Source of the DNA: Lentinula raphanica
Taxonomy: Eukaryota; Basidiomycota; Agaricomycetes; Agaricales; Omphalotaceae
Length of the DNA stretch: 64,000 nucleotides
Assembly: GCA_027919835.1 (NCBI GenBank)
Contig: JANVFP010000002.1
Location: 248,001-312,000 of the forward strand
Reading direction: 5' to 3'
The stretch's first letter is position 1. Each line of letters opens with the position of its first letter. The position numbers and the translations under genes were made by a program. A model generated the notes under the pieces. The model was not told the origin of the DNA. It ran no database searches and saw nothing but the letters and a program-made list of their open reading frames with translations. Below, in pieces: positions 8,401 to 64,000 of the stretch.

Positions 8401-8489
8401 TGGGCCTGACCGGGAATTGAACCCGGGACCTCGTCGAAAGCTACATTCACTGCCCTAACAACGAATCATACTCCTAGACCATCAGGCCC
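8401..8489 (-). tRNA. tRNA-Pro (anticodon AGG) with a 15-nt intron
   Basis: Read on the minus strand, the 7-bp acceptor stem GGGCCTG/CAGGCCC closes with discriminator A at 8401. The D-arm carries the internal A-box-like TGGTCTAGGAGT and the T-arm has GGTTCAATTCC (B box). The anticodon stem CGTTG/CGACG encloses a loop in which TTAGGG is followed by a 15-nt intron (8452-8438) and the final T, giving anticodon AGG (8456-8454) and the intron at the canonical position one nucleotide 3' of the anticodon. It lies 43 bp beyond the RecQ stop codon, on the opposite strand. Confidence 0.9.
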
Positions 8490-8821: not shown

Positions 8822-8864
8822 CAGCGCCTACCATAAATCATGTCAAGCACCAGACTCCTTCCCA

Positions 8865-9118
8865 TTCGCTATCGCAGCTGAAAAAATTATAATCCCAGTT
8901 ACTTACCATAAATAGCTTATCTCATATCTAATCATATCATGTGACTATACCATGTCATCATATCTTATCTACGTTGAATTTGCTTAGCTATAGCAGCTAA
9001 AAAATTCAACGTAGATAAGATATGATCACATGGTATAGTCACATGATATGATTAGATATGAGATAAGCTATTTATGGTAAGTAACTGGGATTATAATTTT
9101 TTCAGCTGCGATAGCGAA
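8865..9118. repeat. Near-perfect palindrome (two 117-nt arms, about 20-nt loop)
   Basis: Arms 8865-8981 and 9002-9118 are inverted copies differing at about one position; the loop itself contains TTAGCT...AGCTAA. The left arm is continuous with the MULE-like terminus at 8851, whereas the right arm stops about 14 nt short of the expected terminus. This suggests it was once a complete foldback element like the copy at 58876-59390 and lost its right tip. Transcribed, it would form a long hairpin. Confidence 0.9.
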
Positions 9119-9401
9119 CTAGAAAAGCGCAGACTGCGTCTGCAAAACCCTTGCTTGACTGGAATTGAATCAAACTACAGTGAACATTCACAAAGATGAC
9201 ATAGATTATTGGCAAGGCAACCAAAAAGGCCATGAGGGCAGTGAGTCATGTAGTCTTCGTTGGAAAGACTGATGGTTTGCTGGAGATTGTTTCCGGCGGT
9301 GTCATTCAAGACTTTGGCATTACTAGTAGTACCCTTGACAAAAGGGAGTGAGAATCAGAGACTATTTTGAGATCAGAGAGCCAAGGAACTAACAATGTTT
9401 G

Positions 9402-9785
9402 TGTCAGATTCGGTACGCCGACGCGGTTCATAACGATGCCATGTGACTGTTAGGCGTTCTGAGTGTATGCGCTCCGGAGGGGACAGCACTTGCATTTGCT
9501 TCCGCAAGTACAGCCCGACGAGGGAGTTTCACGAACGGTTTCAGGGTATCGGACTCGAGTCATAAGTATTGTAAAATTTCCTCTATATATACGTACGAAA
9601 ATTATTCGGAGTCCCCTCAGAACTTGTCGTTGTTCTGAGGGTACGTCCATTCACTTATTCTCATCTTAATCATTCCATACTTACAATGTCCTGTAGCTCT
9701 GTGTCTTACTTAGGTTACAGGTAAATGAGAACTTGTCGTTGTTCTGAGGCTCTGTGTCTTACTTAGGTTACAGCGAATCTTAACA
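9402..9785 (+). repeat. 5' LTR of the Copia element
   Basis: 384 bp, TG...CA ends. It contains a TATA-like CTCTATATATAC at 9581-9592 that may serve as the core promoter. Within it a block containing AACTTGTCGTTGTTCTGAGG and another containing CTGTGTCTTACTTAGGTTAC each occur twice, so the LTR has an internal tandem duplication in its 3' part. Confidence 0.95.
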
Positions 9786-9850
9786 GATTCGCAGTCAGAA
9801 TCGCAAAAGAGACTGACCTAGACTGACACGCCTATTGCGTTGACCCAAAA

Positions 9851-12800
9851 ATGTCGAATTCACTTCCAAATCTTATCTCCTTCCCGGAAGAACGTCAGCT
9901 TGCCGGAATTAGCAACTGGGCTGTTTTTCGTGATCATCTCAAAAGTGTAGCTCGGGCAACAGGACTCACTGGTTACTTGGATGGAACGATCGTCGCTCCT
10001 ACAACTCCCACTGCTCCGACTACTACCACCGTGCATACGACTACGTCTGATGGTGCTCCTGGTTCGTTCACAGCAGCTCCTGCGGTACCTACTCCCACTC
10101 CTATAAACTCGCATAGCCCATCCATCGAGGAATGGGAATTACACGACGGTCGTCTTGCGGGTATCATCTATCAAAACATAAAGGATCCTCGCTCGATTGG
10201 AGTCACCGAAGAAATGTCCTCTCACAAGATGTGGACTCGCCTTATCAGCGAGTATGATACGTCCTCCGCCGCTGCTCAATCACTAGCGAAGGAACGAATC
10301 CAACAGTTCCGTTACACTCCTGGAACCCCCTTCGAGGAATACTTCAAACATTTGGAGGCACTCCGTAAAGCCGCGAGCGACGTAGGATGTACCATCGCCG
10401 ATGATGATCTTCGTTCTCGGTTTCTCACCTCTCTCAATGCCGATTACCTTTGGGTTATCCAGAATCATGGATCTCGCACATACTCGGACCTCAAACGAGC
10501 TCTGGTCGAGTATGACATGATGGTTGAATCCGCGCTTCCTTCCTCCGCCAACACGACTGCTCCGAATGCCCTGGCTGTCCCATCCCGATCCAGCTCTGGT
10601 GGTGTCGTTTGCGATAACTGCAAACGGGTTGGTCATACCAAGAAGAATTGTTGGGCTAAAGGAGGTGGAAGCGAGGGGAAAGCCCCTAGATGGTACAACG
10701 CTCCTAAAGGCATGGAACCGTCTCCAAAACCTGTCACGGCTGCCTCGATCCAGGAGGAAGAACGCCAATTCGCTGCCGCTGCCACTGTGTACGACTTCAG
10801 CGACTATGACTTCGGAGGTATGGATAAGCTATCGTGTTGCCCAACTGCTCCTGACGCTCACTCGCATAGACTGGGAGAACAAGAAGCTTTTGCCCTTTTA
10901 AGCGATGAGCAGGGCAACACGAGTAGCATAGCTCCATCCTCTGTAGCTAGTAGTAGTCCGCCGAATTCGATCATAGATGTTCCAACTTTTATCGACAGTG
11001 GTGCTTCTCATTGGTGTATCCGTAATCGTCGTCGGTTCGTGACGTATACTCCTGTTAAGAGTGTTGGGCAGATGGCAGCCGAAGGTTCTTCTGGGTCGTT
11101 TGCCATTGAGGGTCACGGTATTGCAGAGATTACAGTGAAGAATGACGATGGATCTATCCACAAACTCCGCTTCCATGCCTCCCATACTCCAAGTTTTGCG
11201 ATGAATCTCCTCTCCCTACCCAGCATGGACAAAAAGGGTTTGAAAGGCGAGTGGGGCAGTGGACGAATTGATGTGCGCGATCCGAAATCTGGGAAGGTGA
11301 TTGTGAATGGTCGAATCGCTGGGAAACGTGGCGGACATGGTCTATATCAAGTTGAAGTCGTCGACGATTTGGATCGTCTCCAACCTGCGTATGTTTCTTC
11401 GTTGGGAACCCCCGATTCAACTTATGTCCTTGCCTCTTCGGGTCGATCGCGTTCGAAGCCTTGTTCTCTCGAGATGTGGCATAACCGGTTTGGGCATGCC
11501 GATGTAAACACGATCCGTCTAATGGCTAAGCGGAATATGGTGGATGGTTTAGAGGTATCGGACTTCTCGTTGTGTGGGAAGTGTGAAGTGTGCATATATG
11601 CAAAAGCGAAACGACATCCATTTGATGAGGTTGTGATCCCAGCATCAGAACCTCTGGACCGAGTTAGTCTTGACTTGTGGGGTCGTGCTCGTACGAGGAG
11701 TTTAGGGGGAGCCTACTATATGCTATTAGCATGCGATGATGGCACCGGAATTCCATTTTCTTACTTCTCTGCCAACAAGGATGCCGAGTCAATTCTAAAG
11801 CTTGTTCAAGAGTTTGTTGCTATGGCTGAACGTCAAACGGGACGGCGCGTGCGCGTGTTTCGTATAGATCTGGGTCGAGAATTTGACAACAAGCTTTTCG
11901 ATGCATGGTGTGCTGAGAGAGGAATTCTGGTTGAGAAGGTTCCCAAGGCTTCGTCAGCAGCTAATGGACAGGTCGAGCGAGCAAATCTCACCATCATATC
12001 TGGAGTGCGAGCCATGATCGAAGACTCTGATCTTGACCACCGTTTCTGGGCTGAGGCCGGTGCGGCATACAGCTACATACGTGGTATGATCCCTACAAGC
12101 AGACATCCTGGGGTTATTCCATGGGAGAAGTGGTTCGAATCAAGGGGTCTTAAAGTGAATGTGTCCCATCTCCGACGTTGGGGGTGCAAAGTTTGGGTGA
12201 CAGATTTGGATCACATCGAAGGTAAACTGGGTAGGCAGGCATGGGAAGGAAGAATGGTTGGTTACGTTGGGCGTAGAGGGTATCGTATCTGGGATCCCAG
12301 ACGTCGAGGCGTATATCCGGTTCGAGATGTGGAGTTTGAAGAGGGAGTCCCTAGACGTACTCTTCAGGATCCCTCGGTTGTCTCGGCAGGACCTGATCTC
12401 GACGTCGAAACGGATCAAGCGGCTCGCTCCGAGGGTCTCCCCGAATCTTCAGTAAACTCCGAAAATCTAACTCGGGCGACTGGTTCTGAGCCCACATCCT
12501 TGGATCCGACTACGACTCAACCCCAATCCATGCCCAATCCAGATCCTCCATCTGTTCCACCTAATCCACCTAATCCTGGGCCTTCTTCTCTTCGTCGTTC
12601 TACTCGTCTTCGTAACCCCTCGGCTCGTCTTCTTCAGTCCATGGAACACGAGCAAGATGTTCAACGTGCACAAGCAGAGGCTGAGGAATGGGCCAACATT
12701 GTCGTCCTTGCCAGCACCATCAAAGGGGGAGGGGATATAGCTATTCCAAAATCTTATGCCGATGCAATGAGGGCCCCGAACGATTGGCATCCTCCCATGC

Positions 12801-14362
12801 AGAAGGAGATCAAATCTCTTAGGGACCGCGGTTGTTGGACCTTGGTGGACAGACCAGAGAATACCCGTATATTGAACGGGATGTGGGTATACGATCTGAA
12901 AGTTGATGGTGATGGAGTAGTTCTCAAGCGAAAGGCTCGGTACGTTGCTAGAGGAGACATGCAGGTTCCTGGCGTGGATTTCGAGAAGAGTTGGTCCATG
13001 GTCGCAAGGTCTGAATCCGTTCGTCTCCTCATCGCTGTCTGCGCCTTCAAACGGTTACAAACGCGACAATGGGATTTCTCCTCCGCCTATCTCAACGGAT
13101 CGTTGCCCAAGGATCCACCTGTGTTCATGTACCAGCCCACTGGGTTTGCCGTTCAGGGGGAGGAAGACAAAGTGTGTCTTATGCATAAACCACTCTACGG
13201 CATGTCTCAAGCTGGTCATATTTGGTACAAGGAGCTTGAAGGGCAGTTTCAGAAGTTGGGCTTCAAATCCTCGCGCGCTGATCCATGTATACGCTATCGT
13301 CGGAATCCCGAGACGAACGAATTCTCTATTGCCTCGGTTCACACAGACGATGTTTTCTGTGGGTCATCGTCGCCTCACGAAGCTGACGCTGCGGTCAAGG
13401 GCTTCGAAGTTTGGGACCTCTCCGACGTCAAAGACAAGAATTTTCTCGTGGGTCTAACTATCGAACATCGTACAGACGGGTCCATTGCTATATCACAAAC
13501 TCCGTTCTTCCTCAATGCCTTCCGGTACTTTGGGATCGTAGATCAGCTGCGGCCACTGTACACTCCTCTCCCACCAAATTTCTCCTTATCATCGCTGGAA
13601 CCACGGACTGAGGACGATATTGCGTTCATGAAGGATAAACCATATCGTGCTATCTTAGGTTGTTGTTGGTGGGGTGCCAGTTGCACACGCCCTGACATAG
13701 TCTTTGCCTGCAGTGTACTCTCCACTGTTCAAGATGCTCCCTCTCGTTCCCATTGGGATCTTCTCATCAAGCTCTGCCGATACATCCATGCCACCATCCA
13801 CTATGGCATTGTGTATCGACCGGGCACCTCTGACTCGGTCAAACCGGTGGGATACGTAGATGCCGACTGGGCTGGGGATAAAGTTACCCGAAAATCTATG
13901 TCTGGTTATGTCTTCCTCATCAATGGCTCTCCGGTCTCTTGGTCTTCGAAACGTCAGGCCTCGGTCGCTCTATCGTCAACGGAATCCGAATACATATCTA
14001 TGTCTAGGGGGGTTCAACAAGCGCTGTGGACGCGAAGCTGGTTCGACGAGATTGAGATGGGTCTGGGTGAGAAGCCGATGAACATCTTCTGCGATAATCT
14101 CGGCGCAATTAGTCTAACGGAGACGAACAAGGAGCACAATCTGTCGAAGCACATAGATATCCGATATCACTTCATTCGTGATGTTGTCGCGCGCGGGAAG
14201 GTTGAAATACATCCTGTTCAGAGCAACCAGAACCTCGCCGACATCATGACAAAGTCGCTTCCTAAAGACAAACATCGTCGGATTGTGTCTGCACTTGGCC
14301 TTGATTGGTGGTACAGAACGCCAGGGGGAGTGTCAGATTCGGTACGCCGACGCGGTTCATAA
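9851..14362 (+). CDS. Copia gag-pol polyprotein
   Basis: 1503-residue polyprotein of a Ty1/Copia retrotransposon. Domains in order: gag (about 1-240); CCHC zinc knuckle CDNCKRVGHTKKNC (about 254); aspartic protease core FIDSGASHW (about 379); integrase HHCC zinc region from WHNRFGH to CGKCEVC; integrase core with D in LDLWG, D in RIDLGREF and E in NGQVERA (about 607, 671, 706); reverse transcriptase from about 990, whose catalytic box reads HTDD (about 1163) instead of the usual YVDD; RNase H with DADWAGD and STESEY (about 1336-1380). The order INT before RT defines Copia. The frame ends 32 nt inside the 3' LTR. No stop or frameshift is seen, so the protein should be full length. Confidence 0.97.
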   Translation: MSNSLPNLISFPEERQLAGISNWAVFRDHLKSVARATGLTGYLDGTIVAPTTPTAPTTTTVHTTTSDGAPGSFTAAPAVPTPTPINSHSPSIEEWELHDGRLAGIIYQNIKDPRSIGVTEEMSSHKMWTRLISEYDTSSAAAQSLAKERIQQFRYTPGTPFEEYFKHLEALRKAASDVGCTIADDDLRSRFLTSLNADYLWVIQNHGSRTYSDLKRALVEYDMMVESALPSSANTTAPNALAVPSRSSSGGVVCDNCKRVGHTKKNCWAKGGGSEGKAPRWYNAPKGMEPSPKPVTAASIQEEERQFAAAATVYDFSDYDFGGMDKLSCCPTAPDAHSHRLGEQEAFALLSDEQGNTSSIAPSSVASSSPPNSIIDVPTFIDSGASHWCIRNRRRFVTYTPVKSVGQMAAEGSSGSFAIEGHGIAEITVKNDDGSIHKLRFHASHTPSFAMNLLSLPSMDKKGLKGEWGSGRIDVRDPKSGKVIVNGRIAGKRGGHGLYQVEVVDDLDRLQPAYVSSLGTPDSTYVLASSGRSRSKPCSLEMWHNRFGHADVNTIRLMAKRNMVDGLEVSDFSLCGKCEVCIYAKAKRHPFDEVVIPASEPLDRVSLDLWGRARTRSLGGAYYMLLACDDGTGIPFSYFSANKDAESILKLVQEFVAMAERQTGRRVRVFRIDLGREFDNKLFDAWCAERGILVEKVPKASSAANGQVERANLTIISGVRAMIEDSDLDHRFWAEAGAAYSYIRGMIPTSRHPGVIPWEKWFESRGLKVNVSHLRRWGCKVWVTDLDHIEGKLGRQAWEGRMVGYVGRRGYRIWDPRRRGVYPVRDVEFEEGVPRRTLQDPSVVSAGPDLDVETDQAARSEGLPESSVNSENLTRATGSEPTSLDPTTTQPQSMPNPDPPSVPPNPPNPGPSSLRRSTRLRNPSARLLQSMEHEQDVQRAQAEAEEWANIVVLASTIKGGGDIAIPKSYADAMRAPNDWHPPMQKEIKSLRDRGCWTLVDRPENTRILNGMWVYDLKVDGDGVVLKRKARYVARGDMQVPGVDFEKSWSMVARSESVRLLIAVCAFKRLQTRQWDFSSAYLNGSLPKDPPVFMYQPTGFAVQGEEDKVCLMHKPLYGMSQAGHIWYKELEGQFQKLGFKSSRADPCIRYRRNPETNEFSIASVHTDDVFCGSSSPHEADAAVKGFEVWDLSDVKDKNFLVGLTIEHRTDGSIAISQTPFFLNAFRYFGIVDQLRPLYTPLPPNFSLSSLEPRTEDDIAFMKDKPYRAILGCCWWGASCTRPDIVFACSVLSTVQDAPSRSHWDLLIKLCRYIHATIHYGIVYRPGTSDSVKPVGYVDADWAGDKVTRKSMSGYVFLINGSPVSWSSKRQASVALSSTESEYISMSRGVQQALWTRSWFDEIEMGLGEKPMNIFCDNLGAISLTETNKEHNLSKHIDIRYHFIRDVVARGKVEIHPVQSNQNLADIMTKSLPKDKHRRIVSALGLDWWYRTPGGVSDSVRRRGS

Positions 14363-14714
14363 CGATGCCATGTGACTGTTAGGCGTTCTGAGTGTATGCG
14401 CTCCGGAGGGGACAGCACTTGCATTTGCTTCCGCAAGTACAGCCCGACGAGGGAGTTTCACGAACGGTTTCAGGGTATCGGACTCGAGTCATAAGTATTG
14501 TAAAATTTCCTCTATATATACGTACGAAAATTATTCGGAGTCCCCTCAGAACTTGTCGTTGTTCTGAGGGTACGTCCATTCACTTATTCTCATCTTAATC
14601 ATTCCATACTTACAATGTCCTGTAGCTCTGTGTCTTACTTAGGTTACAGGTAAATGAGAACTTGTCGTTGTTCTGAGGCTCTGTGTCTTACTTAGGTTAC
14701 AGCGAATCTTAACA
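14331..14714 (+). repeat. 3' LTR of the Copia element
   Basis: 384 bp, by eye identical to the 5' LTR including the internal duplications; followed by the target duplication GTTTG at 14715-14719. The gag-pol stop codon lies inside it. Confidence 0.95.
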
Positions 14715-15993
14715 GTTTGAGCAATCTAGAGCTAAGAGAGCATAGAAGGTATATGAACATGGCCAAAGGCACTACACAATGATCCAGATGACAAATAACT
14801 TATAAGTCTTCACAATAGAACATTATCAGTATGCATAAACAAAGATATCCTTCTAAATCACTGAGTTCCGCTCTTCCGCAGGCTCAATGATGAAGACTGA
14901 GGATTTCGAGTCATTCTTGAATTCCATGCTCAACTTTTGGATATCAATACTATGGGACATTTCTGAGTGGAAAGGAGACAATGAGAGTGTCGGAGATGTA
15001 AGAGGATCTTATTTATCCTCAGTGAGAGGAGAATGCACATGAATGGACATACACAAATGAAGTATGTGAACGGAAATGGAGAACGTATACAAACCAAGAA
15101 TGTGGGCAAAAGAGAGACAAATTGAGGATGCAAGAGGATGTTGATGGAGGACAGATGCAAGTAGTGAATAAAGCCCTTGCTTGAGGCTGCTTGATGTTGA
15201 ATGTTGAATGAAGCTTGAAGCGGAAGTACAGAGGATAACTGTTGGCTTTAGGCGCTTGCTGTTTGTAGGCTCTGGGAGGCACATACCGAAGGAAGCGCTG
15301 AAGAAAGCGCTGGAGTGACGTAATTTGTTTATCCGATGTTTACGGAAAACAACCGAATTAAAGGGGGTGGAAAGCCCTTGACAAGCAAGGGAATGGGAAG
15401 GAGTCTGGTCAAGCACACTTTTTTCTGACTCAAAAAATAAAAGGTACCCGAGATATGTGAAGAGATCTGAAGAGATGTGACTTAGTAGAATCACTCAGAT
15501 TCCATGGAAACCTCTCCTGGCTCTCCATCTCTCTCCATTCTTGTGCTCTTACATCAGTGTGCCGACTGATGCCGGATGATCAATCGTTGATCCATGCCGT
15601 AATTCCTCCAAAATTTCTCGGCTTCACTGCCAGCCATCAGCATCGATCACTCGGGACCTCTCGGGTACCTTTTATTTCTCGACGTAAGAAAAAAGTGCAC
15701 TTGCCATGAATTATGGTACATAGGCGCTGTAAAATACAGAGTCCAAATTTGATGATCCAGCCACACATCGGCTCATGCTATTTTGAACTGACCCTGCAAA
15801 ACCTGCGGTGGACCCAGGGTGGACCCTGGTGGACCTCAAGCCTCAAGCTGCCTCAAGGCGGTCTTCTGATATACATCAACTCAACCAGGCCTGACGACCC
15901 TGGCAGATCCTCAGGCCTCAGGAGGCGCCCTTTACAAAGCAGGCACTCAAATCTTTCTTAGTCTTTCCTTCGTTTTGTCCGACCAGACAAAAT

Positions 15994-58875: not shown

Positions 58876-59390
58876 CAGACTCCTTCCCATCCGCTCTTGC
58901 GGGTTAAAAAATGAGGATATTACTATATATGGCATATCTTTATCTTATCCTTATCTATATCTTATCTTGTCATATGATAATTTGCATTTTTTAACCACGC
59001 AAGAGCGACTGGCATAATATGTCTAAGCGCCGGATGGTCTTGTTTGGTTCCAGTATTCAAATTTATAGTGCCCATGTCTTCAATGCTCATTATCATAATT
59101 TTTGAGGTGGCTAACTTACATTTGATTACACAAATTACATCCAGTTTGAGCTCTTAAACTACATTGTGGCCAGTGGAAGGATTGTTGAGTGAAAAATAAT
59201 GGGCACTACCAACTGGAACCAAACAAGACCATCCGGCGCTTAGACATATTATGCCAGTCGCTCTTGCGTGGTTAAAAAATGCAAATTATCATATGACAAG
59301 ATAAGATATAGATAAGGATAAGATAAAGATATGCCATATATAGTAATATCCTCATTTTTTAACCCGCAAGAGCGGATGGGAAGGAGTCTG
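58876..59390. mobile_element. MULE-like foldback MITE, second copy of the CAGACTCC family
   Basis: 515 bp with two 179-nt inverted arms (58876-59054; 59212-59390) that look identical by eye and a 157-nt spacer. Ends CAGACTCCTTCCCATCCGCT. The 9-bp target duplication GCGCTATCC is present at 58867-58875 and 59391-59399. The same translated string appears on both strands because of the inverted repeat, so open frames here are not genes. Long inverted repeats plus a 9-bp duplication indicate a Mutator-like non-autonomous element; shares termini with the element at 8851-15407. Confidence 0.88.
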
Positions 59391-60447: not shown

Positions 60448-63400
60448 ATGCAGGTTTCTGTTCAGTCTCTTGGGCCCGTCACCTATAGTATCGACCGCCG
60501 TCTGGATTGCTCTCTTATCTCCAAAACGGTTTTGTCTCATCATTTGGAATGGCGTTTTTTGTCAGCGTCCTATCGGTTGCCTGTATCTGTTTCCTATGGG
60601 CTGAACCTGTCTTTCACCACGTCAATCGATTTCCGCGTCTCCTCACATGTCCCTGCTGGTGTTGACATTATTCTTGGTACCTCATTTGTGGACAGTTGCT
60701 CATCACATGGTGTTGAGTTGGACCGTCTTGCGTTGAGCGCATCCGCCGTGACCCCCTCTCAGTGCATGAGTGTTGTTGAAGCACTACCCTCTTTGAAGGG
60801 ACCGGCTCTGGTTGCCAACGTGTTCAATTGCAGGTGTAACAGTGGTATTACCCTATCACCGTTCGTGGCTGATTTGCATAGTCTTCGTCAAGTTGCATTG
60901 TTGCATGGAATTTCTTTGCTTAACTGTAGCGACAGTAAGGCTGCTGCCTGCGCTATCATCCGTCATCTTATGCATGGCCATTGCTTCTAGAGCAGCTTTC
61001 GGCTGTGTGCTTGATTTTCGGACGGGTTTCCTTCAGTCTCTGAGTACACCAGTCATCTTGAAGAAGTTGTGTGTACGTCTTCTATTCTGTCAAATGATGA
61101 CCTATGTTTGATCGTTCATGCTGTTGGTAACAACACTGTTTTCAAATTGAATGACATGCGTCGTCAAATATTGGCTGCATTGCGGAGGTTCTTCCATCAC
61201 GACTTTAACACCCCATTGCGAGATTGGTCTGTATCTGAGACCTTCCGTTCATTCTATAGGCTAGACCGGTGCAGTTTGGTAGATGTTGCCAGCGCTCATG
61301 GTCTATCTGATGCTTTGTATTCCACTTCTATTAAGGACATTCATGTCAGCATTCTCCGTCACTTGTGGAAAGTCTGAACATGGAGGTTCTTTTCATCCTG
61401 CGTGTGCAGCTGTTGTCACTGATTATGTTCGAACAGTGTCACCTGGTCGTTTTACTTCAGTTCTGCCAGAACGGTTGTCCTTTTTACACTTCTTGTCACA
61501 GCAGCTGTCTTTGGCACCCTTGCGTGATGTACTGATGTTGCTGAATTTGACTTACAGTAAGGAAGATTCACTTTCTCATCTTCAAAACTAAGTCGAAACT
61601 TACATCGAGCGCAAACGTGATGCTGTTGAACATACATCAGACGAGCGCGCTGATCCTTTGGCATCTATAGCAGCTGAGTGGCCTCAAGTGGTATCTCAGG
61701 AGATGAAGGACAGGCTTTTGTCTGATTTCAAATCTTTTACCTCCAGTGAAGCATTATCTTCCGTGACCTGTGCATCTTGTGCAGGGTCTACTTTATCTTC
61801 TGAATGCATCACTGTGGACGTCCGTGATGTTGATATCTCTCTGCTTCGATGGCCAGATGTTAGAGAAAGTTCTGCGGGAATAGTTGTTGATGCCCATTGG
61901 TTTTCTACTGAAACTGAACTCGATTTCGAGCCTGCTATCCAGCATATGCCTGACATTTTAATGTCACCTGCTGGTGTTACATTCGGAGATGGCCAGTGTA
62001 TCAAGCTAGTGTTGTGCAGACCCTGCCATTCAGCATTGATAAGCAATCGTGTGCCCCCTTTGTCTCTTGCCAATCATATGTACTTGGGTAAAGTCCCATT
62101 GGAATTGCAAGAATTGACCGTGGTTGAGGAGGCCATGATAGCACAGTGTCGTGCAAAATGTTGGATTGTACAGTTGAAAGAGGAAAACTCTGATTATCAT
62201 TCACCAACCTCTCAACGAGGCTTGCGAGGCAACATAATTATATATCCTCAAAAAGTTTCTGGCATAGCTAAATTGCTGCCTCCGAGCCTCGATGAAATAG
62301 CTGCTGCAATGTGTGTAATATTTGTGGATGTGAATTCCCCTTCTCAGGAATGGTTGCGGACTAAAGCAAAACCACTGGCCATCCGCCCTCACAAAGTTTG
62401 ACTTGCTCTCGAATGGCTCAAAGCACACAACCCATTATATAAGGATGTTGTGATCAATGTGTCTCTGCTCGACAGCCTTCCTGATGAACATTTTCTTTCT
62501 GTGCATGTTGAGCATGTAATGGCCAGTAGCACTTTGGATGCACTCACATCTGGTTATTCTCCCATGTCGGTTCCCTCAGGTTCTCCAACTGACGACCGTG
62601 TTGGAGAGCAGTCAAACAAATGTCCGGATGAATTACCGTTGGTAACTTTTGACAAAGTAGTCATAACAGATGTTGATGGCTCTGCAATGTCCAACCAGCT
62701 TCGGGCTGCAGCCCTTCGACATGTTCAGAATAATGGTGCTTTTGTTCAGATACCACATGCAGTGCAACCAGTGAACGAATTTGTAAATCCAGAGTTGTTT
62801 CCATTGATATATCTGACATTGTTTCCATATGGGATTGGAGGGTTTGAACATCATTCTCGGTCTGTGCAAGTATCTTTTCAACGTCAGGTTAAACATTTCT
62901 GTAATCTCACCATCAGAAAAAATACCTCAGCTCCAAAGACTCTAGAGACACCCCCCCAAAAGCCCTGAAATCTTTGAAGTGCTCCAGAGAATCTGAAAGC
63001 ACTTTCAGGATGCCTGGAGAAACTCAAAGTGCTTTCAAAATCTCTGGTGTCTCCAGGCTTTGGGGGGGTGTCTCAGAAGACTTCAGAGTCAGAAACATTT
63101 TTCCTGATGACTGACAAACGTTTCCAAGAGCACAACTCATTTTTGTTCACTGCGAAGTTTAATATCATCCAAAGGAGACAAGCGTTGCTTCACACTAGTT
63201 TTAAAGTCAAGAAGTTCAACTTTGACTACATTGCTTCGACGTTTGCTTCAGCATCACCAGAAAGTGTCCGCACAGTCTGTGAACATCTAAGCCAAGGAGA
63301 CCGTGTAGGTTGCAGTACCACAGAGGAGAGACAGCTCATGAATCTTATGAAAGAGCTGAATGTCATCAATACCCATGTGTCAGGATCATCTGCTTCAAAG

Positions 63401-64000
63401 GTGGCGATGCGAAATTCGTGCCATAAACATTGAAAAAGGACTGCCCAGCTTTTTCTTAACCATCAATCCTGCCGATGTGTACAACCCAGTCGTGAAATTT
63501 TTGGCTGGATCTAACATCAACATTGATAACATGGCTGACAAAGATGTACCCAATTATTGAGACCAAGCTAAACTTGTCGTCAAAAATCCTTTTGTTGCTG
63601 CCCGTTTCTTTCATATCTATATTACTGCATTCATCAAAACTATTTTGGGCTATGATGCACATTCTTCTGCAATAGGTAAGGGAGGTATTTTCGGACACGT
63701 CAGTGCATACTATGGGTGTGTTGAGGCACAGGGATGTGGTACCCTACATTGTCACATGCTGATATGGCTGCACGGTGGACTCAATCCTGATGAAATCAAG
63801 GCCAAAGTTGCAGGTGTTGACGGAGGTGCTTTTGAACAGTGTCTGATTCAGTATCTGGATGACACCATATCTTCTGCGGTTTTACCTGATCCAGACCCAC
63901 AGTTTCATGTACAGTCTTGTACTTTTCATCCCTGCTCAGTCCGCGGATTAATGAGTGATATGCCAGACAATGCAAAAGGAAAGGCGCACTCAAAAGATCA
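60448..64000 (+). pseudogene. Degenerate Helitron Rep/helicase gene, 3' end outside window
   Basis: Rolling-circle transposon protein in decay. The N-terminal third holds a stretch with VPAGVDIILGTSFVDSC and HGISLLNC often seen ahead of Helitron proteins in mushrooms. Then comes a DUF6570-like region (SLANHMYLGKVPLELQELTV, about 62060-62180). The Rep (helitron-like) domain follows from about 62770: NPELFPLIYLTLFPYGIGGF, FNIIQRRQALLHTSFKVKKF, LPSFFLTINPADVYNP and GCGTLHCHMLIWLHGG. In-frame stops are at 60988 (TAG), 61012 (TGA), 61589 (TAA), 62399 (TGA) and 63558 (TGA); frame shifts occur near 61370, 62895 and 63410, and a small insertion at 62899-63092 interrupts it. The helicase half would lie beyond 64000. 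Not functional. Confidence 0.85.
62899..63092. mobile_element. 194-bp insertion in the Helitron gene with 8-bp direct repeats
   Basis: AAACATTT is present at 62891-62898 and 63093-63100, directly flanking the insert, which has the size and duplication length of a hAT-type MITE. Removing it brings QVKHF next to FLMTDKRF of the Rep domain (one further nucleotide shift remains). Internally it contains a strong inverted repeat, GAGACACCCCCCCAAA (62945 on) against its complement ending at 63074. The outer ends are only weakly inverted, so the superfamily is uncertain. Confidence 0.6.

What the first reader, a model, noticed from the sequence alone, without database searches (positions are those of the whole stretch)
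9119..15390. Possible gene capture by a MULE-like element (Pack-MULE style)
The left arm pair 8851-9118 looks like a complete foldback element of the family seen at 58876-59390, except that its right tip (TGGGAAGGAGTCTG) is missing at 9118 and appears instead at 15394-15407. Between the two lies about 1.2 kb (excluding Copia) that looks like a fungal gene: C/T-rich leader, ATG at 14957 and two open segments, one of which would join a hydrophobic stretch by a one-base shift. This is what a MULE carrying a host gene fragment would look like. Such captures are well described in plants but much less so in fungi. The encoded protein is one I cannot place.
Basis: partly seen in the sequence, partly recalled or inferred. 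Interest (0 to 1): 0.75.

Follow-up and report, generated by a model that had tools for sequence, protein, structure and literature searches.

The report
Helitron-borne transporter gene fragment in mushroom
A rolling-circle jumping gene in a mushroom picked up the start of a transporter gene, landed inside a different jumping element, and was later hit by a third one, which made it look as if the outer element had captured the gene.

Summary
The foldback arm at 8851-9118 and its missing tip at 15394-15407 belong to one mobile element with a perfect 9-bp target-site duplication. The gene capture is also real: the cargo (9215-9401 + 14720-15033, minus strand) matches an apparently intact, intron-containing MFS transporter gene on another contig (411 of 454 aligned bases identical), outside the CAGACTCC pairs found. 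The captor is wrong, though. Everything between arm and tip, 9119-15393, is a Helitron: 5' TTCCCTTGC, 3' hairpin plus CTAG, no target-site duplication, inserted exactly between an A and a T. Leaving it out restores a 282-bp palindromic foldback. Its 5' 224 bp match a dispersed short-Helitron family. A Copia with identical LTRs (9402-14714) later split the cargo. The outer element is not MULE-like by its relatives' proteins: four long copies encode DUF6589, whose predicted fold resembles DDE transposases, and RecQ-like helicase pieces. That fits AcademH, reported to make 9-10 bp duplications. Verdict: a three-layer nest holding a Helitron capture traced to its donor gene. The process is known, but traced host donors look scarce in the fungal papers seen. 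No expression data were available.

The parts
8842..8850 (.). left 9-bp target-site duplication GTCAAGCAC of the outer foldback element
8851..9118 (+). outer CAGACTCC foldback element, everything except its last 14 bp
   Evidence: with 15394-15407 it forms a 282-bp palindrome, 274 of 284 columns self-complementary
9119..15393 (-). nested Helitron (957 bp without the Copia), 5' end at 15393, 3' CTAG at 9122-9119, inserted between A9118 and T15394
9119..9143 (-). Helitron 3' terminator: stem GCAGAC/GTCTGC (9129-9143), GCTTTT, CTAG (9119-9122); no second copy in the genome at up to 3 mismatches
9159..9214 (-). 56 bp of unplaced filler
9215..9401 (-). captured MFS transporter fragment, downstream part (intron 2, start of exon 3; exons read by eye from the donor)
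9397..9401 (.). left target-site duplication GTTTG of the Copia
9402..14714 (+). Ty1/copia retrotransposon inside the captured fragment; LTRs 9402-9785 and 14331-14714 identical; one 1503-aa ORF
14715..14719 (.). right target-site duplication GTTTG of the Copia
14720..15033 (-). captured MFS fragment, upstream part: 5' leader, exon 1 (ATG 14960-14958), intron 1, exon 2; intron 1 donor site changed and small insertions present
15034..15169 (-). 136 bp of unplaced filler
15170..15393 (-). 5' 224 bp of a short Helitron of a dispersed family, cut off just before its original 3' hairpin
15394..15407 (+). missing right tip of the outer foldback element
15408..15416 (.). right 9-bp target-site duplication GTCAAGCAC
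58876..59390 (+). sibling non-autonomous foldback element of the same family (515 bp), duplication GCGCTATCC

Best explanation
A three-layer nest in Lentinula raphanica. (1) A 282-bp non-autonomous foldback element of the CAGACTCC family sits at 8851-15407 with a 9-bp duplication. Its long relatives encode a DUF6589 protein with a DDE-transposase-like predicted fold and a RecQ-like helicase, so it probably moves by cut-and-paste and fits AcademH rather than MULE. (2) A Helitron, running from TTCCCTTGC to hairpin-CTAG, inserted between an A and a T of that element, 14 bp from its right end. Compared with its short relatives it lacks their 3' hairpin and has gained 136 bp of unplaced DNA, about 500 bp of an MFS transporter gene (leader, exon 1, intron 1, exon 2, intron 2, start of exon 3, in sense orientation), 56 bp of unplaced DNA and a different 3' terminator. 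(3) A Copia inserted into the captured fragment recently. Shown: boundaries, insertion site, donor, introns kept (so DNA-level capture), nesting order. Inferred: rolling-circle movement; the way of capture (patchwork filler-DNA or template switching at the 3' end somewhat more likely than simple read-through, because the pieces beside the MFS fragment do not match the donor's flanks); and that the fragment is dead.
For: Donor. Empty site: A9118|T15394, restoring a palindrome self-complementary in 274 of 284 columns. Helitron 3' ends: 8 of 10 compared copies end in CTAG, each followed by T; 9 of 10 have 6 of 6 stem pairs, with three different paired stem sequences. 5' end: 31 exact genome copies of the 19-mer and 4 with one mismatch, reversed control 0. 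The first 224 bp align with the 261-bp and 266-bp short copies up to the hairpin. The new terminator has no second copy at up to 3 mismatches. Helitron Rep domains are in the genome: 27 matches to PF14214, some from the same gene. Identical Copia LTRs. Outer element.
Against: Of nine 5' ends read, 5 follow A and 4 follow G, so the A|T rule holds only in part outside the window. The 5' end reads TTC, not the textbook TC (recalled). No Rep-bearing element with these termini was found: of the 35 5' ends, one has a Rep match within 25 kb downstream, and that is on the opposite strand. The cargo is a single copy, so no sibling shows movement after the capture. Two of ten 3' ends read CTAT, and one stem has a mispair. 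The compared copies were chosen because they matched the window ends.
Confidence: 0.9

Rival explanations
1. The outer foldback element itself captured the gene (Pack-MULE or Pack-TIR style): gap repair after transposition copied the MFS fragment between its arm and its tip.
For: 9-bp duplication around the whole; donor gene exists elsewhere; the donor lies about 7 kb from another CAGACTCC element on the same contig.
Against: Both edges of the segment are complete Helitron ends shared with dispersed copies, nearly all outside CAGACTCC pairs, and the join is a clean A|T.
Confidence: 0.04
2. Variant of the best explanation: simple read-through capture. The Helitron once lay just upstream of the MFS gene, skipped its 3' terminator, and ended at a chance hairpin-CTAG inside the gene.
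For: The short Helitron is cut off just before its hairpin; the cargo is 3' of it and in sense; the new terminator has no second copy. PMC4289320 (section 14) and passages of PMC5148889 describe read-through and end-bypass models.
Against: The 136 bp and 56 bp beside the MFS fragment match neither donor flank above shuffled controls, although the fragment itself is about 90% identical at aligned bases.
Confidence: 0.3
3. Variant of the best explanation: a short Helitron inserted in the foldback first and the MFS fragment was patched into it on the spot by break repair, so the cargo-bearing Helitron never moved.
For: Single copy of the cargo; TCAAGCAAGGGYTTT stands on both sides of the added stretch.
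Against: The terminal hairpin differs from the nine family copies compared with it, which suggests a recruited rather than an original 3' end.
Confidence: 0.25

Closest known systems
Helitron gene capture in fungi (Pleurotus HELPO1; Aspergillus nidulans Helitron-N1_AN, both as told in PMC4289320: abstract and sections 7 and 14 read)
   Same: 3' CT[A/T]G end with subterminal hairpin, no target-site duplication, cargo 3' of the older Helitron part
   Different: Pleurotus cap genes have no copies outside Helitrons and none of its intact elements showed P. ostreatus gene fragments; here the donor is a gene of the same genome, and the cut-off short Helitron is still visible
Pack-MULE (plants; recalled)
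   Same: terminal repeats, 9-bp duplication and a host-gene fragment with introns between the ends
   Different: the fragment entered inside a complete Helitron; no MULE domain over cut-off was found in the outer family
AcademH DNA transposons (Kojima 2020; paper not held, known here from passages of PMC10045372 and PMC10799480 and from recall)
   Same: 9-bp duplication; SF2 (RecQ-like) helicase beside a DDE-type protein; basidiomycete host
   Different: identity of DUF6589 with the Academ transposase was not testable here

Membership tests
Helitron (inner element) | 3' CTRR end with a short hairpin just inside it | tested here: met
   CTAG in the window copy and in 8 of 10 copies compared, window included (CTAT in 2); 6 of 6 stem pairs in 9 of 10
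Helitron (inner element) | no target-site duplication, insertion between A and T | tested here: met
   window: A9118|T15394 against the palindromic empty site. In the copies compared, window included: 3' neighbour T in 8 of 8 CTAG ends, 5' neighbour A in 5 and G in 4 of 9
Helitron (inner element) | 5' end beginning TC (recalled) | tested here: inconclusive
   TTCCC; one extra T if the A|T site is kept
Helitron (inner element) | autonomous partner with Rep/helicase and the same termini | tested here: inconclusive
   27 PF14214 matches in the genome; the only one within 25 kb downstream of one of 35 5' ends is on the opposite strand
Pack-MULE | host-gene fragment carried directly between the element's own terminal repeats | tested here: not met
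   the fragment lies inside a complete Helitron
Pack-MULE | target-site duplication of about 9 bp (8-11, recalled) | tested here: met
   GTCAAGCAC; 35 of 41 pairs perfect at 9 bp, 34 of 40 without the pair chosen by its flanks
Pack-MULE | MULE transposase in autonomous relatives | tested here: not met
   no MULE-family match in the ten ORFs of L009 and L015 scanned; 0 of 14 PF10551 matches inside a CAGACTCC pair. Against: the pair L019 holds an ORF with a PF10551 hit below cut-off, E 0.026
AcademH | 9 or 10 bp target-site duplication | tested here: met
   the criterion as quoted in PMC10045372
AcademH | encodes a superfamily II helicase | tested here: met
   DEAD and Helicase_C over cut-off in L015, Helicase_C over cut-off in L009 and L016; in L011 both below cut-off. 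RecQ models are the best NCBIfam match for 7 of 7 helicase pieces scanned, all below their full-length cut-offs
AcademH | Academ-type DDD/E transposase | not testable with these tools
   no Academ reference sequence held; the DUF6589 model matches Hermes, P element, ISCth4, Tn5 and RAG1

The most novel reading that the evidence does not exclude
Second-hand capture: the foldback with the gene-bearing Helitron inside it jumped as one unit, so a cut-and-paste element acquired a host gene through a Helitron. Some apparent Pack-type elements of mushrooms may arise this way. The same elements would identify DUF6589, a Pfam family of unknown function, as the DDE transposase of this 9-bp-duplication group.
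Probability: 0.15. Interest if true: 0.55.

Novelty: new member of a known kind. Interest (0 to 1): 0.4.

Why it matters
In the papers seen here, host-gene capture by fungal Helitrons has few traced donors. This copy keeps the donor, the cut-off short Helitron, the new terminator and the empty insertion site readable, so models of capture can be tested on it. It also warns that two matching TIR ends and a clean target-site duplication around a gene fragment do not prove that the TIR element captured it. In passing, it links DUF6589 to DDE transposases.

Tried and rejected
Rejected: MULE capture (Helitron ends at both edges); an element gene of the CAGACTCC family (none of the four long relatives matched the segment in the rows printed at E 1e-10 and over 80 bp); a unique orphan segment (donor found). 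I first considered a two-hairpin or Helentron-like element on the plus strand and dropped it once the minus strand showed hairpin plus CTAG.

Led nowhere: searching two other DUF6589 loci (L075, L076) for spanning inverted repeats and a 9-bp duplication gave none in the 6.0 and 5.5 kb read, so the tie between DUF6589 and such ends rests on the four CAGACTCC copies; the other 33 of 37 DUF6589 matches in the genome lie outside CAGACTCC pairs. Pairing Rep domains with the Helitron ends failed. The 136-bp and 56-bp fillers were not traced. The first control for the 9-bp duplications (186 of 8200) let an element draw its own flank; (0 of 1640) replaces it. No paper holding DUF6589 was found in the library, none for RecQ + transposase + Agaricomycetes + terminal inverted repeats, none for Helitron + captured + parental gene + basidiomycete. 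The listing for Pack-MULE + fungi (listing only) includes PMC3538342, whose title reports transduplication in a fungus, so capture by fungal DNA transposons is in print. In the fold comparison no MULE structure is listed; that says nothing.

Full report
Setting. The window is G000:C2:248001-312000 of a 49-Mb genome in 75 contigs. Two of its contig lengths (1350157 and 2145657) equal those given for Lentinula raphanica proteins in the homology search, so the host is this shiitake relative.

The cargo and its donor. The two parts of the cargo hit one place outside CAGACTCC pairs: C1:1967220-1967675. With the Copia left out they align as one stretch, 411 of 454 aligned bases identical. The donor locus L065 has MFS_1 matches over cut-off in two successive ORFs and below it in a third (TIGR00893 is the best NCBIfam model for the two ORFs tried, below its cut-off). 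I read its exons and introns by eye; the frames join across short introns, so it looks intact. The cargo holds the leader, exon 1, intron 1, exon 2, intron 2 and the start of exon 3, so it was copied as DNA. It is decayed: the intron 1 donor site is changed and insertions of lengths not divisible by three lie in exon 2. At donor CpG positions 17 of 46 bases show C-to-T or G-to-A in the cargo, against 10 of 162 at other C/G positions; in the reverse direction it is 2 of 12. This fits deamination of methylated CpG in a repeat (inferred) and makes the cargo the derived copy.

The captor. On the minus strand the segment 15393-9119 begins TTCCCTTGCTTGTCAAGGGC and ends in a hairpin, GCTTTT and CTAG. 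The 19-bp end has 31 exact copies and 4 with one mismatch in the genome. Copies L067 and L069 are 261 and 266 bp long from end to end, and the window's first 224 bp align with them up to just before the hairpin. Eight of the 35 ends have a recognisable 3' partner within 8 kb: five at 201-254 bp, two at about 1.1 kb, and the window's own. Among ten 3' ends compared, 8 end in CTAG followed by T, 2 in CTAT, and 9 have a fully paired 6-bp stem, with three left-stem sequences (GCCGCC, GCCACC, GCAGAC) that pair with matching changes on the right; L069 has one mispair. Left out, the segment leaves a join A9118-T15394 and a 282-bp palindrome, 274 of 284 columns self-complementary. These are Helitron hallmarks (hairpin, CT[A/T]G and lack of duplication as stated in PMC4289320; the A|T site is recalled). 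Against a strict reading, the base before the 5' end is G in 4 of 9 copies, and no autonomous partner with these ends was found.

How the gene was taken up. The parts are: short Helitron (224 bp), unplaced 136 bp, MFS fragment 501 bp, unplaced 56 bp, new 3' end 40 bp. The new terminator has no second copy in the genome at up to 3 mismatches. The unplaced pieces do not match donor flanks above shuffled controls. I therefore favour patchwork uptake over plain read-through, without certainty. PMC4289320 (abstract, sections 7 and 14 read) reports gene-like captures of unknown origin in Pleurotus HELPO1, no clear old internal terminator and no P. ostreatus gene fragments in intact elements, and mentions one Aspergillus nidulans capture. 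In PMC5148889 (passages only) 27 putative captures are listed for Fusarium Helitrons.

Order. The Copia is recent (identical 384-bp LTRs) and came after the capture it splits. The Helitron came after the foldback sequence it interrupts. Whether the composite later jumped as a whole is open: the cargo is single copy.

Noticed in passing
G000:C2:87111-122625 (L022, L023 hold the ends): CAGACTCC ends 35,515 bp apart with the same 9-bp duplication GGTTCAGAG: a candidate giant element or a heavily nested one; about 18 kb, 9 kb at each end, was fetched, its long ORFs listed and one of them scanned without a match.
   Followed up: partly
L032 (C27:309396) and L033 (C48:81799): A lone left end and a lone right end on different contigs share the 9-bp flank CACCATCTG, as if one element had been split by a translocation or by assembly.
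   Followed up: no
window 9215-9401 and 14720-15033 against L065: Indels are mostly insertions in the cargo: 10 against 1 deletion with dear gap opening, 13 against 1 with cheaper. The insertions repeat their flanks more than random ones (sum 16 against mean 6.1, p 0.001). Unexplained.
   Followed up: partly
L048 (C8:1043458-1043923): A second CAGACTCC pair, without target-site duplication, holds a copy of the same Helitron family.
   Followed up: partly
C1:1959756-1960274 (L036): The MFS donor lies about 7 kb from a CAGACTCC element on the same contig.
   Followed up: no
L019 1334-5517: A CAGACTCC pair with 9-bp duplication encloses ORFs matching DUF6729, a 3'-5' exonuclease domain and, below cut-off, a MULE domain; not known whether nested or its own.
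   Followed up: no
L010 5922-6629: A hAT dimerisation domain lies inside another long CAGACTCC pair, probably a nested hAT element.
   Followed up: no
window 63351-63764: Part of a Helitron Rep domain with two TGA stops (converted from C2:311351-311764).
   Followed up: no
window 8401-8489, minus strand: A tRNA-like gene, anticodon not resolved by ARAGORN, about 350 bp left of the foldback.
   Followed up: no
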